Assembly (NCBI GenBank): GCA_022453515.1 | Contig: JAJNNY010000085.1 | Span: 60,764 to 124,763, forward strand | Direction: 5' to 3' | Source of the DNA: Astrocystis sublimbata | Lineage: Eukaryota; Ascomycota; Sordariomycetes; Xylariales; Xylariaceae | DNA: 64,000 bases | In this document: piece by piece, positions 861 to 30,627 of the stretch | How positions within the stretch are numbered: position 1 is the stretch's first letter | Layout: every line of letters starts with the position of its first letter | Position numbers and translations under genes: made by a program | Notes under the pieces: generated by a model | Seen by the model: the letters and a program-made list of their open reading frames with translations, nothing else | What the model was told of the DNA's origin: nothing | Databases searched by the model: none

Positions 861-3608
861 ATGTATAACAACCACCATAGCTCGTCGTCGTCGGGTCCGC
901 CGCCGCCATATCCACCGGCCACCGACCGACACAACGCCTACCCGCCACCACCGCCGCCCTCGAGTCTACCGCCGCCGCCGCCGCCTCCCCAGCAATGGGA
1001 CAGACGCGACAGGGGCGATGGCCGAGATGGACGCGATAGTCGCGACAGCTACGACCGGTACGACGACCACCGTTCCCGCGATCGAAGGGACGACCGCCGC
1101 TTTCGCGGCCCTTACTCCGACTTGCGCCAACAGCGCGGTCCTTCTGGAGGCTATCGAGACCGAGACGATCCGCGCGAATCCCGCGACTACCGCGACTATG
1201 ACAACTACCGTGATTCTCGCGACTCTCGCGACTCTCGCGACCATCGTGATCGCCGCGATGACTTCCAACCGCCTCGGGGCGACTTCACTTTCCAGCAGGC
1301 CGCACCCGGCAACATCTCGTCCTACCGCCCCAACGACTACCCCAGGTATGCCCATCACTGTACCCATCTCAAACATGATAGACAGCATCCTCTGACTTCC
1401 AGTTCCCGCAGCTTTGATCGCCAGGGGTCCAACTACGGTCCCCGCCGGTTACGGGGCAACGGGCGGTATCCTGACCGACCGCGCCGCGGTGGCCCGTATC
1501 AACCGTATCAACGCCGCGAGAAGGAGAAGGCGGCCGACCGGCTGCTGCTATCCAAGCGATTTGACGACGAGAAATCCGAGCTGATGCTAGGAGATACGGC
1601 CGTGCGCGCCACGTACCGAGATGTCGATGAGCTCTCCGATAGTGACGAGGTGGACATGGACATCTCGGACAACGACGACGCTGTCCCGAATGCAGCCGAA
1701 CGGCCCACGAAGCGCGCTCGCACTAATCAATCGGCTGCCGCATCCGCTGACGACGCGCCCAAGTGGTCCAACCCGGACCCCTACACGGCTCTGCCACCGC
1801 CCGAGACGACTCGTAAGAAGGACGTGGTGCAGCTGATTAGAAAGGCGCGCGTGGAAGCTGAAGCACAGAAACCCGCCGTATCGGCCGAGCAGGCTGACTT
1901 TATCTCGTTCGATGCTTCCGATGACGAGGCTAACGCACCCGCAACGCCCCCAAGTGATTTAAACACTGGAGGTGCATTTACTTTTTCAGTGGAGAAATGG
2001 AAGACGGCGGTTGATGTGTCACAACGTTTCAATAAAGTTAGTTCGTCGGATGACCTTGCTGGGCTCCCTGCTGCATCCTTAAATCTACCCCCCAAGCCTC
2101 CCGCATCGACCGCCAACCTCAACCTCGCCCCGCCGCCGACCGAGCAGTCGCAACCCTCGCAACCCTCGCAACCCACCGATCCAGCCCAGGTCAAATTCTC
2201 TGCACCTGTTGATCTCGCCCCTTCCACCGGCTTGGGCAACCGTAAGCGGAATCTTGATGATGAGATTCTGCAGCCCATGCAACCTCCGCATGCACTCTTG
2301 AAGAAGGTGAACAGAATGTCGCCTGGCGGCAACGTCGTGCCCATATGGCAGCCTGTGCCGGGCCAAGAGCCCTGCCCTTGGGTACAAGATCCTCATTTTG
2401 GCGTGCCCAACATGGGTACACGGTAAGTCTCAATCCCACCACTGCTTCTGATTGATCCGACAACGGATCGCCGCCGCCGCGAGACTGACCCTCGTAGCCT
2501 GCATATGGAGATCAGGGACTTCTACGAATATGTTGCGCCCCGTCCCTTCGAAGAGAAGCTGCGCCAACAGCTGGTGTCACAACTGGAGACGGTCGTACAT
2601 GCAAGATGGCGCGACGCCAGGATACTGCCATTCGGCTCTTTCATGTCTGGTCTTTACCTGCCCACGGCCGACATGGACATCGCCATCTGCTCCAATGAGT
2701 TCATCGAGCGGAGCAAACTCTGCTTCGACAAGAAAAGGTTTCTTTGGCAGATGAAGTCCCATCTTGAGTGGCACCGGGTTCCTTACAAGAACTCTGTCGA
2801 GGCTATTACCCGCGCCAAGGTTCCTCTCTTGAAGTACACGGACGACCACACTGGCCTGAAGGTTGACATCTCCTTTGAGAAAATGGACGGCTACAACGCC
2901 ATTGCCACTTTCAAGAAGTGGAAGGACCAGTATCCTGCCATGCCTCCACTGGTCGCCGTCATCAAGCACTTCTTGCTCATGCGCGGCCTCAACGAACCGG
3001 TTAATGGCGGCCTCGGCGGGTTCTCCATCATCTGCATGGTGGTTCATGTCTTGCAGACTATGCCCCAGGTGCAGAGTCGCTCTATGACGGACGACCATCT
3101 GGGAGAAGTCTTGATGCAGTTCCTCGACTACTATGGGAACCGGTTCAATTACGAGAAGGTGGCTATCCGCATGGATCCACCTGGCATCCTTAACAAGGTG
3201 CGTAATCTAGTTCACGATTCCATACTGACCTGCTAACGCCAAGTACAGGCCAAGGCGAGCTCTGTCGTGTATCGCAACCTCGACCGAATCTCCATCATTG
3301 ATCCGAACAACCCCGAGAACGACATCTCGGGTGGCTCGTCGAGTTTCTATGTCATCAAAGATGCCTTCGCCAAAGCGTATCAGACTCTTCAGTCGGGCAT
3401 GATGCAAGCCGCTAAGGAGACTTCCTTGACCCCGACTGATCCTATCAGGAGGAGGAAGGGTGACGTCAGGAAGACGTTGTTGCACCCACTATTCGCCGGC
3501 AACTACTCACACTTTGAAAGGCAGAGAGCTTGGCTGCAGAAGTTAGACCGTGAAGGACGTCCCGAGAATGCCACAAGCTACAGCGATGCCGTTAAATCGG
3601 AATGGTGA
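861..3608 (+). CDS. Trf4/PAPD5-like noncanonical poly(A) polymerase
   Basis: Nucleotidyltransferase of the Trf4/5-Cid14 group, which in fungi adds short oligo(A) tails to nuclear RNAs within TRAMP to feed the exosome. Exons 861..2422, 2498..3197 and 3249..3608 join in frame (873 codons); both introns have good donors, and the second has a TGCTAAC branch site. I start at 861 (MYNNHHSS) rather than the in-frame ATG at 798. Residues 1-500 are low complexity: proline runs, then RD/RDYRDSRD-rich repeats resembling an RNA-binding or nuclear-targeting tail, then acidic stretches. The catalytic core starts near residue 525, with GS at 567-568, metal-binding D579 and D581 in TADMDIAI, and a later PAP-associated GGLGGFSIICMVVH segment. 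A further 66-nt intron at 1346..1411 (frame-neutral, good GTATGC donor) is likely and would remove 22 atypical residues, leaving 851. The family assignment is firm; TRAMP membership is inferred. Confidence 0.9.
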
Positions 3609-17273: not shown

Positions 17274-20200
17274 ATGGCGTCTAATAATTGGGAGCGGTAC
17301 AAACCCCTCATAATTCAGCTATATCTGGTCGAGAACTCCTCGCTTGGTGAAATCATTACGTACATGCAAGAAAAGCACAACTTTGCCAAGAAGTAAGGAC
17401 GCCATAGCATTGTCTAATTGTCGTACTAACGCCCTGGAAAGGAAACACCAATACGTGTATCAATTCAGCAAGTGGGGTGTTCAGAAGAATTCAAAGAAGA
17501 ACTCGACAAGAGTAGAATGGCAGCACATCAGCCAGCTTCTGCAGAAGAGGATCGGGAAACAGTCACAGGTCACTCAATTTGAGGTCCCTGTCGCTTCAAA
17601 TAAAGTACAAAGGAGACTTCAGCGGTATGCTAATGCTATTCCGACTGCTTCCGAATTCAGGATAGGAGGTGAGCTTCACAGAGGATAATTATTTGAATAA
17701 TTCCATGCTTACGTCAATCCAGTATCGAGCTCTCGGGCGACAAATGAGATGGCCATTCGAGTCACAACACCTCCCATTGTTGATGAGACAACATGGCCTG
17801 CGCTTCCTTGGTTCCAATTCAAAAATCGAATTCTACCCGGTACGCTTTAATGACGCGCATTTTTCTAATACGACTGCTAAATTTTGATCAGCTCTTAGCA
17901 ACCCGTCCGGTCTTCTTAATACGTTCCTCGTGGCGATTGGGTCTGAGAATCTCTTCGACTACCCAAAGGAACACACATTCAGTGCCATCTCGAGACTACT
18001 TCAGGATCCCTCCGAGCTGCTTAAAGTGGCCTCTAAACTCACCTACACGATACCAGATGACTCGATCGATATACTTCAAAAGCAAAAATCTTTGAACAGC
18101 GAAAGATGGCCTCTATTGATGGCAAGTGAGATGCTGAAGATGGTACTTTTCGGCTTGTCGAACAACAATGTCCCATACGATGACCCTATTAACCTGCGAA
18201 TCCATGACCGACTCATACTACATCTTGTGGAGGCAGTGTCAAGCACTAACCCAGAGATACTATCAAATATATTCTCTGGCGCTTGTTCAACAACAAAAGC
18301 TGTGAAAAATGCAGTCTATGGATCTGCGGTTCGAAGGCGTGATTGCGCAGTTGTGTCGCGCCTGCTCGAATCTGGTGTAGATCCGTACACTGTAGTATTT
18401 GGCCAGATCCAATCCTCGACCTTTTCTGCCTGGCGCGGACTACTACACTGTAGAGGAGATTTTGGCTTGCGCTCTTCAAAGACAGCAATGGACTTCGCTG
18501 CAAATGCGGCGGATATCCGTCTTGCTCAAATACTAGTACGCGCCGGGGTGCGCGTGAACTGGATGGCAGATCTCACCCTGTTAGATATTGCTGCGAGCAG
18601 GGGCAGTACTTACCGTGATATGGTTGAGGTTGAAATGCACAAATCCGTGGAGTTCGCTCAATTCATCATCGACAACAGTGTACCAAGCGACCAGTACACG
18701 CCATGTTCTACATGTCAGCGTCAGAGATTGCTCATTACCATTGCGAAATCCATCTCCAGGTCGAATAATTGCCTAGCGAACTTTCTGACTACGAAATACA
18801 GTGCGGTATCACTGTACGGAAACACGAATTCGGCCCAGTGCAGACGTAACCACACTGTACTCAGTGGTTACCACAGTGGACCTAATCGGATGGCTTGCAC
18901 ACCACTACACCTCGCGATTGTTACCGGCAACAAAGAACTTATTGAGTCATTTCTTCCACCGATACTATCGTGTACACTGCGAGCGCCCGTAAGGACTGTC
19001 CAACAGGCGCTTATAGCTTCATGCCTAGCAGGTGATGCGGACCTAGTATCCAGAATTGTTGCAAGCCACCCCACCTTGCCGGCACTCGAAGAGTGGCCAG
19101 AGAGTGTTACACCGCTGGTTGCATCAGCTTGGAACGAAAACACCACGATTTCTCAGCTACTACTGGCCCACGGTGCTCATGCTGGCCCGAAACCGGTTGA
19201 TGGAATCTCGGAGGCATCAATTACACCAATTCACGTGGCAGCGGCACACGCGAATGTAAGCATGGTGAAGCTTCTTATCGAGTCCGGGGTCGACTGCAAT
19301 GTGCATTTGAGCCGCCAGCTATCTACCTTGTATGCTGCACCCATACCGTCCGGATGGGGTCGCGAGGATCACCAGTCTCGGCCTCGAACGCCTCTCCAGT
19401 ACGCGTTAGCAGCAAAGGATGGAATTGACTGCGCAAACTTGCTGGTACATCGGTCCAACTTTATTGGTGGAGAATTGGTTCAGGCGATCGATTTGGGCGA
19501 CGATACTTTAATTCAAGCTATCGTCCAGAAAGGAGTGGACATGCGGTCAATTGACCATCAAGGAAGGAATGCGCTTGATGCTGCTGTTCACAACGGGAAA
19601 CAGCGTACAATCGTTTCATTATATTTCACATCTGGTGGGTCGTATAGCTCTCCAGCTTTATTCCACGCTATCGAAAAAGGCATCGCGTCTCAGGACTATT
19701 CTCTGATTCGGCTGTTGATAAATTACCGACCTATTACGGAAATTGACAGCTACGAAGCTTCATCCATTGTATTGTGTATCGAGCACAAGGAATGGGACCT
19801 GCTTCATATCCTTCTCAACGACCCATTTTGCAGTGGGCTATCAAGTTCACTCTACGAGTGGCGAGCCAAGTACGGGTTATCCTTCAGCTCCGATAAGATT
19901 ACTAAGTCTCCGGGTCTAAGAGGAGCGACACCGCTTTGCCGGGCCATATACTCTGGAAGCGAGGACCTCGTCCAAACAATGATTCAGCGAGGGTTTCAAC
20001 TTCAGGAAGTGGATGTCTTTGTTTTGATGACACTCGACCCAGATAAAATGCATGAAAGTATACGTCATTGGTTTCCTCTGGAGACGATGGCCCAGGCTTG
20101 TCTCCATGCACTTCTGCGCTGCTCAATCTACTTAGACGACGAGCAAAAGGTGCTTGAGTATGCCAGCTTGGTTGATAACCAGGACATGATTCCCATGTAT

Positions 20201-21406
20201 AGCTGCAAGGACCCGAGTCTTGACTTGTATTTACCATACGATCTGCAGGCAGAAGACCCGGAACGCACACACTTGATGCTTGCGGCGAAAGTTGGCAATG
20301 TTAAAGTTATTACAATTCTGCTTGACAGTGGGGCTAAGATAGATTTACGAACGGGTGGCCACTATGGTCCCCATACAGCATTGCAAGAAGGAGCAGCCGA
20401 AGGGAACTTTGAAGTAGTGAAACTTCTCCTTGATCACGGGGCTGATGTTGATCTGATGGGAACGGGCTACAATGGAGCAACTGCATTGCAATATGCTTCA
20501 ATTCGAGGTCATCTCAGCATAGCAAGATTGCTCGTCTCAAGAGGAGCCATGATTGATGCACTGCCAAGCAAAAGATCCGGCCGTACGGCTCTTGAGGGCG
20601 CAGCTGAGAATGGGAGGCTCGACATGGTTCAATTTTTGTTAGGCATGGGAGCAAAAGTAAAAGGCAGAATGCGAATCTACTATATCCGCGCTCTTGACTT
20701 CGCAGTACAAAATGGTCATCAGGTTATAGCAGACGTTCTCAAGGAACACGGGTTGTGGAATGATCGGGACCAGACTATACATGACCGATCCAGCACCTTC
20801 TTCTTTTGTGATTTCCACTACGACGAAGAAGTCGATGACTGGCACCTTCGACTGATAAAATTCAGGAACGATGACGAGTATAGTGTGGGATCGTCAGATA
20901 GCGAGTATAGTGTGGAATCGTCAGATAGCGAGTTCAGTTTCGATCAAACATACGAGTCCGGGACAGCTGAAATCGAAGATCGAGCCGACATCACAGAGGC
21001 TGATGAGTCGCCTAGCGATGACTACGAAAAGTCTAACTGGATTCAGCAGGAGTTTGTCCCTTACTCTCCTACACTCGTTAATCGTAATCAGGAGCGACTA
21101 GATCAGATTACCATGCCCTCGAGAATTACGGAGCTCGATGAGACAGGCGAAGATGACGATGCAATCGAATCTGCTACCCATCGAACAACTGTTTTCGAGA
21201 CCGGCTTCGATTCCGTTGCCACAGACCAACTTGGTATATGGCAGCAGCAGTGTGATTTTGGCGTTGACAGTTGCATTCCAGAAACATTCGTTACTGATGA
21301 ACACAGCAGGCAATTCGTTGGCGACGATGTAGAATGGGAAGGGCCATTTTCTGAGCAGCAGATTGTGGAAACGAACGAGATGTTTGGTGTGGTACCTTGG
21401 TACTGA
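17274..21406 (+). CDS. Clr5-domain ankyrin-repeat protein (1325 aa)
   Basis: Exons 17274..17392, 17442..17668, 17723..17839 and 17892..21406 join in frame to 1325 codons. Residues 1-60 form a Clr5 domain (NWERYKPLIIQLYLVENSSLGEI, then KHQYVYQFSKWGVQKN), a fungal DNA-binding-like module split here, as often, by an intron. A linker with WPALPWFQFKNRILP follows. From about residue 260 to 960 there are two ankyrin blocks: an earlier one with TPLHLAIVTGNKELIESFL and TPIHVAAAHANVSMVKLLIESG, and a later well-conserved one with THLMLAAKVGNVKVITILLDSG, ALQEGAAEGNFEVVKLLLDHGAD and ALEGAAENGRLDMVQFLL. The C-terminal 250 residues are acidic and serine-rich with a short duplicated EYSVxSSDSE unit. The role is unknown; Clr5-ankyrin proteins are common near fungal NLR genes. 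No membrane span. The gene ends 333 bp from the convergent HeLo-like gene. Confidence 0.9.
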
Positions 21407-21739: not shown

Positions 21740-22468
21740 TTATCCAAACATGTGACCGAAAGAAGCCGCATCCATAGTCCCTTGGAATCCCCTGCTGTTG
21801 TTCTGCGCCGACAGTGTTCCGAACGTCTGTCTCACTCCGTCCTGAACTTCGCCAACTACCCCTTGCATAGCGCGAGACTGGTCAATCTGCATGTCCCCAA
21901 AGGTCTGGCCGGTTCGCTCTGCCTGAGTGACTCGACGAGCAGCTTCGCAAGTCTCGTGCAATGTCGCAAATCGGCGAGATCTCGCTTGCTCATCGACCGC
22001 AATGGCGACTTGCGCAGTATTACCACCTTCTTGGGTGTTGGACCCTGTAACTCTTGAGATCGTTTCTTGGCAGCCGCTCAATTCGTCGTTGAATTGAACA
22101 ATCTGCGACCTATGCAGTTGCACATGTATCCTGTCACGATTGCTCAACCTTGATTCGGTCGAATGGCTTGTATACTTCGTCAGTGTTGCCTTGAACTTGT
22201 CGCATAGCTCTCGGGTGGAGGTCAATGTCCTATCGAGTTTAATAGATTGCAGAGCAGGCTCGAACCTCATCTGCACATCTCGATTCGTCGACAACGTTCT
22301 TATAAGGGTATCCAATGAGTTTTGCGTTCCCGTCAGAAGAGTCTTTGACTGGGCAATGGCTTGTGGTGCCTCTGCCAAGCCATCGATCACGCCGTAAACG
22401 GCTTTGGCGCTCTGCGTTACAAGGCCTGCAACAGCAATCACACTTGCTGTGACGCTTAATGGTTCCAT
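21740..22468 (-). CDS. HeLo-like (STAND-associated) protein, putative cell-death effector with duplicated FG...QG motif
   Basis: Single-exon gene of 242 residues. I start at 22468 (MEPLSVTASV) because this is where the conserved domain begins; the open frame upstream to 22600 has no resemblance to it. The N-terminus MEPLSVTASVIAVAGLV...SAKAVYGVIDGL matches the fungal N-terminal domain of STAND proteins (Helo-like), whose relatives form membrane-targeting helical bundles in programmed cell death. Residues 35-180 are helical and polar. The C-terminus carries two related motifs: QTFGDMQIDQSRAMQG (188-203) and QTFGTLSAQNNSRGFQG (214-230), 26 residues apart. The divergent NLR has one copy at its N-terminus. 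The domain is recognised from sequence pattern; the effector role and an amyloid-like mode of activation are inferred from architecture. A plain NLR-derived fragment is the alternative. Confidence 0.82.
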   Translation of the reverse strand: MEPLSVTASVIAVAGLVTQSAKAVYGVIDGLAEAPQAIAQSKTLLTGTQNSLDTLIRTLSTNRDVQMRFEPALQSIKLDRTLTSTRELCDKFKATLTKYTSHSTESRLSNRDRIHVQLHRSQIVQFNDELSGCQETISRVTGSNTQEGGNTAQVAIAVDEQARSRRFATLHETCEAARRVTQAERTGQTFGDMQIDQSRAMQGVVGEVQDGVRQTFGTLSAQNNSRGFQGTMDAASFGHMFG

Positions 22469-22943
22469 ATTGTTCAACTGCAGGATAAAATAGTAGGCGT
22501 GGACAAGATTTATTTTGCATTGGTTGAAAGAATAGATGCCCAGGGTTGTATCTGACACATTGCAGGGAGGCAAGGCTTGAGTGTAGGTGTTCTTATGCAA
22601 GAATAGAGGAGATGAACAGAAGCTGGCGATGACCCGACGAGTACACCAATTCCATCAGGATCTGGCCCCCAACCAATAGTGCCTGTCTCTATAGGATTGA
22701 GACCAATAATACGCTGATCACGTGCTTATGGTTGCAGTGGTGGCTGAACAGTTGTTGTCGTCAGCTCGATTGTCCCGAGAACTTTCATTTTCCATGCAAC
22801 AGCTCCGCCCTGTCTCGATCATAAACCTGTTCTACTTTACATTGTTGATGATAAGTACAACCGAGTTTGAGATACGTGCCCGCATAGTTCATCTGTCAAC
22901 CTACACACCAGCCGCGTCGTCTGAGACGCCGCCTTAGTCCACG
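22469..22943. promoter_or_regulatory. Shared divergent promoter region of effector/NLR pair
   Basis: The 475 bp between the two start codons must contain both promoters. I see no clear TATA box or repeated operator-like site. Head-to-head arrangement with one spacer is consistent with co-expression, which is inferred. Confidence 0.5.
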
Positions 22944-25479
22944 ATGTCGGAAGCCGTGCGGGGTCAACAGCAGTTCGGCAATGCGTCAGTCACCAATGGC
23001 AGTCAATCATTCCAGGGCATTGCCCATGGGGCTCTCTCGATGAACTGTAGGTCGTTTGGCTCACTGGTTTCCGTGCCTGACTACGATCTGCCTTCAGCAA
23101 TCTAATTTATCTTGCTCAGCAACACATAATCACTATGCACCACCACGACCAGACACCCCCCTGAAACCGACAGTCCTCATCCCCTTCAGTCGAGACAAAG
23201 ACTTCGTCAATAGGGACGACATTCTCGACTGTGTTCACGAGCTTAGTGCCACTCAGGCCTCACGAATTGCGCTCGTCGGCCTAGGCGGCGTCGGCAAGTC
23301 GCAGATCGCAATTGAATACGCCTTCCAGATCCGAGACCGATCACCCGACACGTGGGTTTTTTGGGTTCACGCAAGCAACATGTCCCGTTACCAGCAGAGC
23401 TTTCGAGGCATTGCAGACTACCTGAAGCTTGCTGGGCGAGAAGACCCCCAAGCCAATATCTTCCAACTGCTCTACAACTGGCTACTCAGCGAGAAGAGTG
23501 GGAAATGGGTTCTAATCATTGATAATGTTGATGATGCCAGCTTCCTGGTCGAGAGCCCTGCCGACATAAGGGATGGGCAAGCGAATAATCCAGGCAGCCA
23601 CGGTGGAAAACCTCTCGAGCAGTATCTTCCTCATTGTTCACATGGATCAATTCTCATCACGAGCCGAAGCAAGGATACGGCGTTGCAACTTGTCGAATTA
23701 GACAGTATCGTCACCGTCAATCCCATGAGTCAGTCAGAGGCAGTATCCCTCGCAAACAACAAACTAAAGAGTTTACCCAAGAAGGAGGATATTGAGAGCA
23801 TCAGAAGCCTCACTGAGACGCTCGAATACATGCCTCTGGCAATCGTCCAGGCGACAGCCTATATCTTGCGAAGGGAACCTCGCTGCTCTATAGGACAATA
23901 CCTTGAGAGATTTGAGACAAGCGATGGGAAGAAGGCAGGTCTCCTTGACAACACAGGCAAAGAGGAAAAGGCACGCTGGTTACGGCGAGACTATGAAGCT
24001 AAGAATTCAATCATTATCACATGGCAAATATCCTTCGACCATATTCGCAAGATACGACCATCGGCATCCGATCTGCTTTCGCTTATGAGCTTCTGCGATC
24101 GCCAGGGGATTCCTGATAGTCTTATACAGCCTTATATACCTGAACATGATTGCGATCAACACCAACAGCACGCTGCCATTGATAGTAACCACCCGAGCGT
24201 TGACGGTGAATCTACCGATGAAGCGACCGGTTCAGAATTTAGCGTGGATGATCAGTTCCAGGAGGATGTTTCGACTTTGCGTGATTACTCGTTCATTACC
24301 ATTACCGACAATGGGTCGATGTTCGAAATGCACAGATTAGTACAACTTGCAACGCGACGATGGCTTGAAACAAAAGGGCAGCAGGAGAGGTGGAACCATG
24401 AGTTTCTTTATCGTCTCGCCGTACAGTTTCCGCCGGGAGAATACGAGAACTGGGAACAATGTCGGGTGCTCCTCCCGCATGCCAAATCGGCTGCAGCACA
24501 ACGACCAAAGGCCGAAGCGTCGTTAATCGAGTGGGCCTCCGTCCTACATAAAGCCGCGTGGTACCTAAGATATTTGGGTGAACTACAAGCGGCGGAGAAG
24601 ATGGCGGAGGATGGAATGGAAGTACGAATAAGGATTCGTGGAACAAACCACGAAGATACGATTAATAGCATGCATCGTCTGGTGGTCATCTATAATCTAC
24701 AAGGCCGATGGGAGGCAGCAGAAAAGCTGGGTGTGGAAGTGATGGAAGCTTCGAAGCAGAAATTTGGAATGGAGGATGAGTGTACACTAGACTGTATGGC
24801 TGCCTTGGTATCAACATACGTTCTCAAAGGCCAGTGGGAGATGGCAGAGCAGCTAGGAATACAGGTGTTGGAGAGTCGTAAACGGATACTTGGAGAAGAT
24901 CACATGAGCACGGTAACGAGTATGAATGACCTTGTGAAAATATGGTTGGAACAGGGCCGATGGGACGCGGCAGAAGAACCTCAACTCCAGGTGTTAGAGA
25001 TTAGCAAGCGGAAACTTGGAGAGGATCACCCAAATACGCTAGTTACCATGGGTAACCTTGCGAGTATATGGGGGGGACAGGGCCGATTGGAGGCGGCAGA
25101 AGAACTACAACTCCAGGTGTTAGAGACTCACAAGCGGATACTTGGAGAGGATCATCCAGAAACGCTGGCTAGCATGAATAACCTTGCTGTTACATGGAGG
25201 CAACAGGGCCGATGGCACGTAGCAGAAATCCTAGGAAAAGAAGTATTCGAGGCCCGTAAACAGAAACTCGGAATCGATCACCCGGACACGTTATTGGGTA
25301 TGAATAATCTATCTCATATGTTCGCTCGACAGGGCCGATATTCAGAAGCTCTCGAGTTGATGCGGCCATGTATGCCGATGGCGAAAAAGGTCTTCGGGCC
25401 TCAGCATCGGTGGTACCTTGTGTTTGAAAGAAACTTGGAATATTACGAAGGGTATAGGAAGGTTAATGCTTCTGGTTAA
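22944..25479 (+). CDS. NB-ARC/TPR NLR (STAND) receptor with N-terminal FG...QG motif
   Basis: Exons 22944..23046 and 23120..25479 give 820 codons in frame; the start at 22944 is chosen because the 73-nt intron (GTAGGT donor, TCTAAT branch, CTCAG acceptor) fuses it correctly to the linker HYAPPRPDTPLKP. Residues 9-25 (QQFGNASVTNGSQSFQG) form a short motif shared with the divergent HeLo-like gene. The NB-ARC domain follows: P-loop GLGGVGKS at 88-95, Walker B-like KWVLIIDNVDD, then SILITSRSK and a winged-helix region ending MFEMHRLVQLATRRWLE. The C-terminal third has about seven 42-residue TPR units of kinesin-light-chain type (RWEAAEKLGVEVMEASKQK..., GEDHPNTL). The architecture is that of a fungal NLR that senses a ligand through its repeats and signals through its N-terminus. 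The ligand is unknown. Confidence 0.9.
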
Positions 25480-29802: not shown

Positions 29803-30627
29803 TCAAAAAATGTCCTCCAGCATCTTGATGATATTTCGATTACCCCCTTCCCGTGCGGCCCACAGGCACGAGCGACCCAGCTCATCTTGGGAATACACAC
29901 AGGCACCCTGTTCCACCAGGTATCTCGCAGTCTCCTCCTGGCCCTTCAAAGCAGCCCGGTGCAGCGCAGTGCCCATTCCCACAACCTCATACTCTTCGTA
30001 GTCTTGGGGCCACCACGGCCAATTGTGCTCAAGATCAGGACCATGCGCAGCCTCCACGAGCAGCTTCAAGGCCTCGAGGTTGCCGGTCTCGGCGGCGGCG
30101 ATGTGGGCGCTTTCTTCGTATTGAGTCCAACCATACTGCAACATATATCGGATGATGTCGGATTTGGGGCAGGGTCCCGCGACGGCCAGCACAGCTGCTT
30201 CGTAGCCCCTATAGTCATGTGTCTGGTTGGGGTTGACGCCGGCCTGGAGCACGACGCGTGCGAGTTCGACGTTGCCGTAGTAGGCCGCGATACTGAGTGC
30301 GTCGCCTAAGTCGCTGTGATGCTTGCTGATGTCGACACCGTGCGCGATCATGACATTGAAGATTTCCGGCGACCGTGAGAAGCAGGCTTCATCGTAGAGA
30401 TTGTTGTTGTACACGTCAGGGCCCATTTGGAACCTGGAGCGAAAGCACCAGTCGAGGATGTGCGGCACGCCATGTCGTGCAGAGAGCAGTGCGATGTATT
30501 GAAGGAGGGTGTCATCTCCCATCTGCATCTGCAGGTCGTACCGGTAAGTCGCAAGGAAGATCCTGATACCTTCCAGGTTCCCTGTGGCGATGGCAAACCT
30601 AAGTCTGTCTGCAATGGAGGGAGGCAT
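29803..30627 (-). CDS. Ankyrin-repeat protein (274 aa)
   Basis: Intronless 274-residue protein starting MPPSIADRLRFAIATGNLEG. Ankyrin-type units run through its length: GDALSIAAYYGNVELARVVLQAGVNPNQ, SAHIAAAETGNLEALKLLVEAAHG and TALHRAALKGQEETARYLVEQGA are clear, with weaker ones before and after. No other domain, signal peptide or membrane span. Probably a cytosolic protein-interaction module. It is unlike the larger Clr5-ankyrin protein in the window. The 3' ends of this gene and the MFS transporter face each other with 428 bp between them. Confidence 0.85.
   Translation of the reverse strand: MPPSIADRLRFAIATGNLEGIRIFLATYRYDLQMQMGDDTLLQYIALLSARHGVPHILDWCFRSRFQMGPDVYNNNLYDEACFSRSPEIFNVMIAHGVDISKHHSDLGDALSIAAYYGNVELARVVLQAGVNPNQTHDYRGYEAAVLAVAGPCPKSDIIRYMLQYGWTQYEESAHIAAAETGNLEALKLLVEAAHGPDLEHNWPWWPQDYEEYEVVGMGTALHRAALKGQEETARYLVEQGACVYSQDELGRSCLWAAREGGNRNIIKMLEDIF

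What the first reader, a model, noticed from the sequence alone, without database searches (positions are those of the whole stretch)
21740..25479. Divergent HeLo-like effector / NLR pair sharing a short FG...QG motif: a candidate amyloid-signalling cell-death module
Seen: the NLR at 22944 begins with QQFGNASVTNGSQSFQG (residues 9-25), directly before its NB-ARC domain. The neighbouring HeLo-like protein ends with QTFGTLSAQNNSRGFQG (214-230). Both contain F-G, seven residues, S, two residues, F-Q-G at identical spacing, although the proteins are otherwise unrelated. The genes share one 475-bp spacer. Known: in fungal pairs such as NWD2/HET-S and PNT1/HELLP, the NLR N-terminus templates an amyloid fold on the effector C-terminus, releasing a HeLo-type membrane toxin domain. 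Inferred: this locus is such a pair. I cannot place the motif with certainty in the HRAM, sigma or PP families; it is Q/N/G-rich like sigma-type motifs.
Basis: partly seen in the sequence, partly recalled or inferred. Interest (0 to 1): 0.92.

Follow-up and report, generated by a model that had tools for sequence, protein, structure and literature searches.

The report
HELLF/FNT1-type amyloid cell-death gene pair
Two neighbouring fungal genes appear to form an immune receptor and a cell-killing protein that talk to each other through a short prion-like sequence, a new copy of a system already worked out in another fungus, with an unexplained piece missing from the killer protein.

Summary
In Astrocystis sublimbata (Xylariaceae), a PF17111 (HeLo-like) protein with two motif copies at its C-terminus lies head to head, 475 bp away, with an NB-ARC/TPR NLR carrying one copy at its N-terminus. 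The effector C-terminus matches the HELLF prion domain of Podospora anserina (6eka, solid-state NMR amyloid; E 6e-15, family profile 1.4e-27). So this is an FNT1/HELLF-type pair with a HET-s-related (HRAM) motif, not sigma. Layout and NLR architecture match FNT1/HELLF; 12 further pairs are inferred from shared contigs. The mechanism (amyloid templating, then membrane-targeted death) is inferred from the published system.

Two points are not routine. The window's effector lacks 38 residues of the killing domain that the complete relatives examined have, while motif copies and NLR are intact. And most NLR homologues listed carry a PP-type N-terminus instead; the same genome has a second head-to-head pair of that kind, whose effector has an in-frame stop. 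New member of a known kind.

The parts
21740..22468 (-). HELLF-type effector gene, 242 aa, read without an intron
22055..22468 (-). HeLo-like (HELL) domain, PF17111, residues 1-138, E 1.4e-14
   Evidence: PF17111 is called HeLo-like in PMC9815663
22040..22051 (-). junction where relatives carry 38 more residues (and probably an intron); effector residues about 140-143
21860..21907 (-). motif copy R1, residues 188-203, one residue shorter than R2
21779..21829 (-). motif copy R2, residues 214-230
22469..22943 (.). 475-bp divergent spacer between the two start codons
22944..23046 (+). NLR exon 1 (holds the motif copy)
22968..23018 (+). motif copy R0, NLR residues 9-25
23047..23119 (+). intron of the NLR gene (73 bp), predicted
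   Evidence: the spliced protein is 100% identical to the NCBI protein
23120..25479 (+). NLR exon 2
23245..23538 (+). NB-ARC match (PF00931, E 3.3e-5), P-loop GLGGVGKS
24046..24372 (+). DUF7779 match (E 3.8e-7)
24799..25362 (+). tetratricopeptide repeats (TPR_10, E 1.5e-75), 42-residue units; limits approximate

Best explanation
This is an Astrocystis copy of the Podospora FNT1/HELLF signalling pair. When its repeat region senses a ligand, the NLR oligomerises through NB-ARC and brings its N-terminal R0 copies together; they nucleate a cross-beta (beta-solenoid) fold. That fold templates R1 and R2 of the effector, whose HeLo-like domain then goes to the membrane and kills the cell. Shown here: gene layout, domains, three motif copies, sequence homology of R1-R2 to a solved amyloid, conservation and inferred linkage in relatives. 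Taken from published work on Podospora: amyloid, prion behaviour, templating, death. Inferred: that the Astrocystis proteins do the same. For this allele the killing step is uncertain, because 38 residues of the domain are missing.
For: Effector residues 180-241 match 6eka at E 6e-15, the only PDB hit at E up to 10; the profile of 17 of the 21 proteins gives E 1.4e-27 and relative P0002 E 2.2e-19. The AlphaFold model of P0002 puts strands at 231-233, 237-243, 257-259, 264-270 (block pLDDT 65-76) and its first Foldseek hit is 6eka, not significant by itself (E 0.26, prob 0.72). HELL domain, NB-ARC/TPR NLR, two copies plus one copy, as described for HELLF/FNT1 (passages). HRAM positions: Q3 in 44/44 R2 and 21/21 R0; F5 in 44/44 R2; R/K15 in 42/44 R2; L/M8 in 44/44 R2; Q18 and G19 were part of the search patterns, so their constancy there is by construction. 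Mean column conservation in the 17-sequence alignment: 0.85 in residues 187-242, 0.74 in 1-140. 13 pairs including the window share organism and contig length, 6 of them with consecutive locus tags; effector and NLR distances over the 13 correlate, Mantel r 0.80, 0 of 10000 permutations as high.
Against: No expression, aggregation or death data. The window's effector is the one protein of the 54 examined that lacks nearly all of the segment without being a broken gene model. The Mantel test is confounded by species relationships. Linkage in relatives rests on names, tags and contig lengths, not on DNA. 9 of the 22 NLRs with the motif (one a truncated model) have no partner in my lists; the lists are clustered at 90%, so that does not show absence. 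FNT1 itself was not compared. The domain model matched no known HeLo or MLKL structure in the 50 of 108 Foldseek rows shown; its confidence is low.
Confidence: 0.85

Rival explanations
1. The pair keeps amyloid signalling but the effector has lost its killing activity, because the 38-residue loss removes about half of the predicted long helix of the HELL domain; it is either decaying or a het-s-like, non-toxic prion form.
For: Segment absent from the protein and no match to it in the window DNA better than E 0.72; in the P0002 model it lies in helix 120-186; R1, R2, R0 and NLR frames intact. In the same genome the PP-type effector has an in-frame TAG.
Against: No significant speed-up in the effector: against P0002, HELL 21 v 10 (p 0.07), linker 10 v 3 (p 0.09), PFD 9 v 2 (p 0.065); against three other sisters all p above 0.1. 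The N-terminal stretch is intact. Both models are of low confidence (mean pLDDT 46.7 and 54.4).
Confidence: 0.3
2. The shared motif is a protein-binding linear motif or chance similarity, not an amyloid.
For: The motif is short; 1 of 2000 and 1 of 5000 shuffles do as well.
Against: Homology over 62 residues to a solved amyloid; the C-terminal region is better conserved than the domain (0.85 v 0.74).
Confidence: 0.05
3. Sigma-type or PP-type motif.
For: Q/N/G content; 74 of 120 NLR homologues carry PP-type N-termini by my pattern.
Against: The two HELLF-type N-termini and the window's C-terminus gave no Pfam match at E up to 10, while three PP-type N-terminal peptides matched Ses_B (two above, one below its cut-off); match to HELLF.
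Confidence: 0.03

Closest known systems
FNT1/HELLF of Podospora anserina (HELLF prion-domain structure 6eka)
   Same: HeLo-like domain, two C-terminal repeats homologous to HELLF 209-277, adjacent NB-ARC/TPR NLR with one N-terminal copy
   Different: Effector 242 aa, HELLF 277 aa; 38 residues of the HELL domain missing against relatives; R1 one residue shorter than in 6eka
NWD2/HET-S of P. anserina
   Same: Two plus one copy layout and HRAM residue pattern
   Different: NWD2 has NACHT and WD repeats and HET-S a HeLo domain; no Pfam HET-s prion-domain match here
PNT1/HELLP (PP motif)
   Same: HeLo-like domain with NB-ARC/TPR NLR; a pair of this architecture lies elsewhere in the same genome (L021)
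   Different: PP is centred on GxQxG and single; PP-type N-termini match Ses_B, the window motif does not

Membership tests
HELLF/FNT1 pair | effector with HeLo-like (PF17111) domain | tested here: met
   E 1.4e-14; but 38 residues missing against relatives
HELLF/FNT1 pair | C-terminal prion-forming domain homologous to HELLF 209-277 | tested here: met
HELLF/FNT1 pair | adjacent NLR with NB-ARC and TPR and one N-terminal copy | tested here: met
HELLF/FNT1 pair | NLR orthologous to FNT1 itself | not tested
   FNT1 sequence not at hand; no Sordariales NLR recognised by name among the 120 listed
HELLF/FNT1 pair | amyloid fibrils, prion propagation, NLR-to-effector templating, death | not testable with these tools
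   published for Podospora (passages)
HRAM (HET-s-related amyloid motif) | two repeats in effector, one in NLR; G19; hydrophobic 5, 8, 10, 16, 18; R/K15 | tested here: met
   R2: F5, L/M8, A/T/V10, R/K15 in 42/44, G19. Departures: 18 is Q (allowed for HRAM4 in PMC4518210), 16 is A or G, R1 lacks the R/K15 preference and in the window is one residue short
HRAM subfamily label | HRAM4 or HRAM5 | tested here: inconclusive
   PMC4518210 gives Q18, and a Podospora HeLo-like protein, to HRAM4; PMC7889193 calls HELLF HRAM5; logos not held
PP (Ses_B, PF17046) | Ses_B profile match in the motif | tested here: not met
   no match for the window N- and C-terminal peptides
sigma | about 40-residue motif of repeated submotifs; Pfam sigma match | tested here: not met
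   no match; length and layout differ from the description

The most novel reading that the evidence does not exclude
The Astrocystis effector is a natural, non-killing HELLF variant: the killing domain has lost about half of its long helix, while the prion-forming repeats, the NLR and the NLR's R0 are kept. Such a form could live as a [Het-s]-like prion and serve self/non-self recognition, the exaptation that PMC7885112 says should be looked for in HELLF and HELLP (passage).
Probability: 0.13. Interest if true: 0.7.

Novelty: new member of a known kind. Interest (0 to 1): 0.4.

Why it matters
It extends the FNT1/HELLF system to a Xylariaceae fungus with paired sequences that can be tested for cross-seeding against Podospora. 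If the domain loss is natural and non-toxic, it would answer an open question on whether HELLF forms damaged in the killing domain exist in nature. The NLR family also offers a case where closely related receptors carry either PP-type or HRAM motifs, which bears on whether the two amyloid motif classes are related.

Tried and rejected
Sigma and PP membership: rejected. Profile homology of the HELLF-type R0 to the PP-type R0: hhalign score 8.5, equalled by 93 of 200 column shuffles, so not supported. A gapped local-alignment version gave mean 27.4 against 18.9 shuffled, 0 of 300 (17 distinct R0 against 40 sampled PP rows), and 1 of 300 for the part after FQ; the sets were picked by patterns sharing parts of the motif, so this is a hint only. 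The missing 38 residues elsewhere in the window: no match better than E 0.72 (only the window was searched for it). Accelerated change of the effector: not significant; the NLR's NB-ARC changed faster against one of three sisters (39 v 18, p 0.0075). AlphaFold on the window protein: mean pLDDT 46.7, of no use for the repeats. Foldseek for the HELL domain: no HET-S or MLKL entry in the 50 of 108 rows shown. Own-genome scan: my motif pattern hit two places, the window pair and L021, among 21 loci, most with about 1.5 kb flanks, so N-termini further out could be missed.

Full report
What was checked. The window lies in a fungal genome (G000, 42.6 Mb, 189 contigs). The NLR protein is listed from NCBI under Astrocystis sublimbata, family Xylariaceae. 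Coordinates, motif positions and the 475-bp spacer of the finding are right. The NLR needs one 73-bp intron.

Domains. The effector matches PF17111 over residues 1-138 (the Pfam name in this copy is PigL_N; PMC9815663 uses PF17111 for HeLo-like, passage). The NLR has NB-ARC, DUF7779 and TPR repeats.

What the motif is. A phmmer search of PDB sequences with the window effector returned one hit at E up to 10: 6eka, effector residues 180-241, E 6e-15. Relative P0002 gave E 2.2e-19. A profile of 17 of the 21 proteins (one partial model and three fragments left out) gave E 1.4e-27; the other six hits were at E 0.23 or worse. Foldseek's entry title names 6eka as HELLF prion amyloid fibrils. In passages of PMC7889193 and PMC7885112, HELLF has a HeLo-like domain and a two-repeat prion domain; its neighbour FNT1 is an NB-ARC/TPR NLR with one N-terminal copy; the prion [Phi] triggers HELLF-dependent death. 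The window pair shows these sequence features. Numbered as in PMC4518210 (parts 1-3 of 5 read; passages), R2 of the family has Q3, F5, L/M8, mostly A/T10, R/K15, A/G16, mostly F17, Q18, G19 (positions 16-21 of R2 and 5, 14, 17-19 of R0 were wholly or partly fixed by my search patterns). The subfamily label conflicts between papers (HRAM4 by the 2015 text, HRAM5 in 2021); I could not see the logos.

Conservation and linkage. The window effector found 21 proteins, the 17-sequence profile 95 (only the 7995 candidates sharing most words were scored). Of the 54 with at least 235 aa, 40 have both copies by my pattern, 7 one, 7 none. Among the 14: P0156, P0159, P0162 and P0165 show the other copy with a substitution, P0164 has a different end, P0013 and P0167 are cut short, P0177 and P0199 look like broken models, and P0211-P0215 have two repeats of another sequence. 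The other 41 proteins, under 235 aa, were not examined for the motif. The NLR search gave 1376 proteins, of which the 120 best were listed: 21 carry the HELLF-type R0 (22 with the truncated model P0029), 74 a PP-type N-terminus by my pattern, 24 neither. Six of the 13 have consecutive tags (for example PG995_006314/006315, PFICI_10698/10699). Effector and NLR distances correlate (r 0.80), with species relationship uncontrolled.

Motif exchange in the NLR family. In a tree of 121 NB-ARC sequences, the 22 HELLF-type NLRs fall in one 28-row clade (SH-aLRT 99) with four PP-type and two other rows; the quick tree needs three changes of label. Holding the 22 together is not rejected (p-AU 0.855; that tree scored 39 log units better than the free one). 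Sampling centres on the window's NLR, deep branches are unresolved and the root is a midpoint, so a change from PP-type to HELLF-type R0 is a reasonable inference, not shown. Motif-level homology between the two types is not established.

Second pair. At G000:C167 (L021) a PF17111 piece (E 1.2e-7) and an NB-ARC/TPR-type NLR (43% identical to the window's) again lie head to head; the effector ends with TFGTNNQGFQTGSINGG..., the NLR begins with MAFSFGDNNYGFQAGQNNG. The NLR side reaches the Ses_B cut-off (23.4 v 23.2 bits); the effector-side piece gave no Ses_B match at E up to 10, so the PP label on that side rests on likeness to its NLR. By architecture it resembles PNT1/HELLP. The effector carries an in-frame TAG just after the PF17111-matching piece, where relatives of the window's effector still have domain.

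The missing segment. In the alignment of the 54, the window effector has 7 residues where P0002 has 45; P0177 (a broken model) has 17 and P0015 33; the other 50 besides P0002 have 42 to 62. Five models (P0013, P0162, P0165, P0168, P0169) carry extra residues at one point of it, as if reading through an intron, so the loss probably took an intron and flanking codons together (inference). The window DNA holds no good match to the segment. In the low-confidence P0002 model it is about half of helix 120-186. Rates of change do not point to decay of the effector. Assembly error cannot be excluded.

Conclusion. Literature on HELLF was sought; one search listed ten papers with the word HELLF, none with a title on Xylariales, and of these I saw passages or sections of three (PMC7889193, PMC7885112, PMC9815663). 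I saw no report of this pair there; that is not proof that none exists.

Noticed in passing
L021 (G000:C167:101000-110500), effector about 2558-3472 (-), NLR from about 4012 (+): Second head-to-head HeLo-like effector/NB-ARC NLR pair in the genome, with PP-like FGxNNxGFQxG motifs on both sides (Ses_B cut-off reached on the NLR side only); the effector has an in-frame TAG.
   Followed up: partly
window 22040-22051: Effector lacks 38 residues (and probably an intron) that relatives have, frame kept.
   Followed up: partly
NLR homologues P0035-P0141: 74 of 120 listed NB-ARC homologues begin with an FGDANSGFQAGIINGPV-like PP-type N-terminus by my pattern, yet by eye Ses_B (PF17046) stands in the precomputed Pfam list of only one, P0135; Pfam may undercount this motif.
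   Followed up: partly
P0211-P0215 (Pyrenophora, Alternaria, Lophium, Pyrenochaeta): Distant PF17111 effectors whose C-terminus has two repeats of a different sequence (ending SAITG / IAVAG or similar), perhaps another HRAM type.
   Followed up: no
window 17930-21406 (+) and 29803-30627 (-): Ankyrin-repeat genes near the pair.
   Followed up: no
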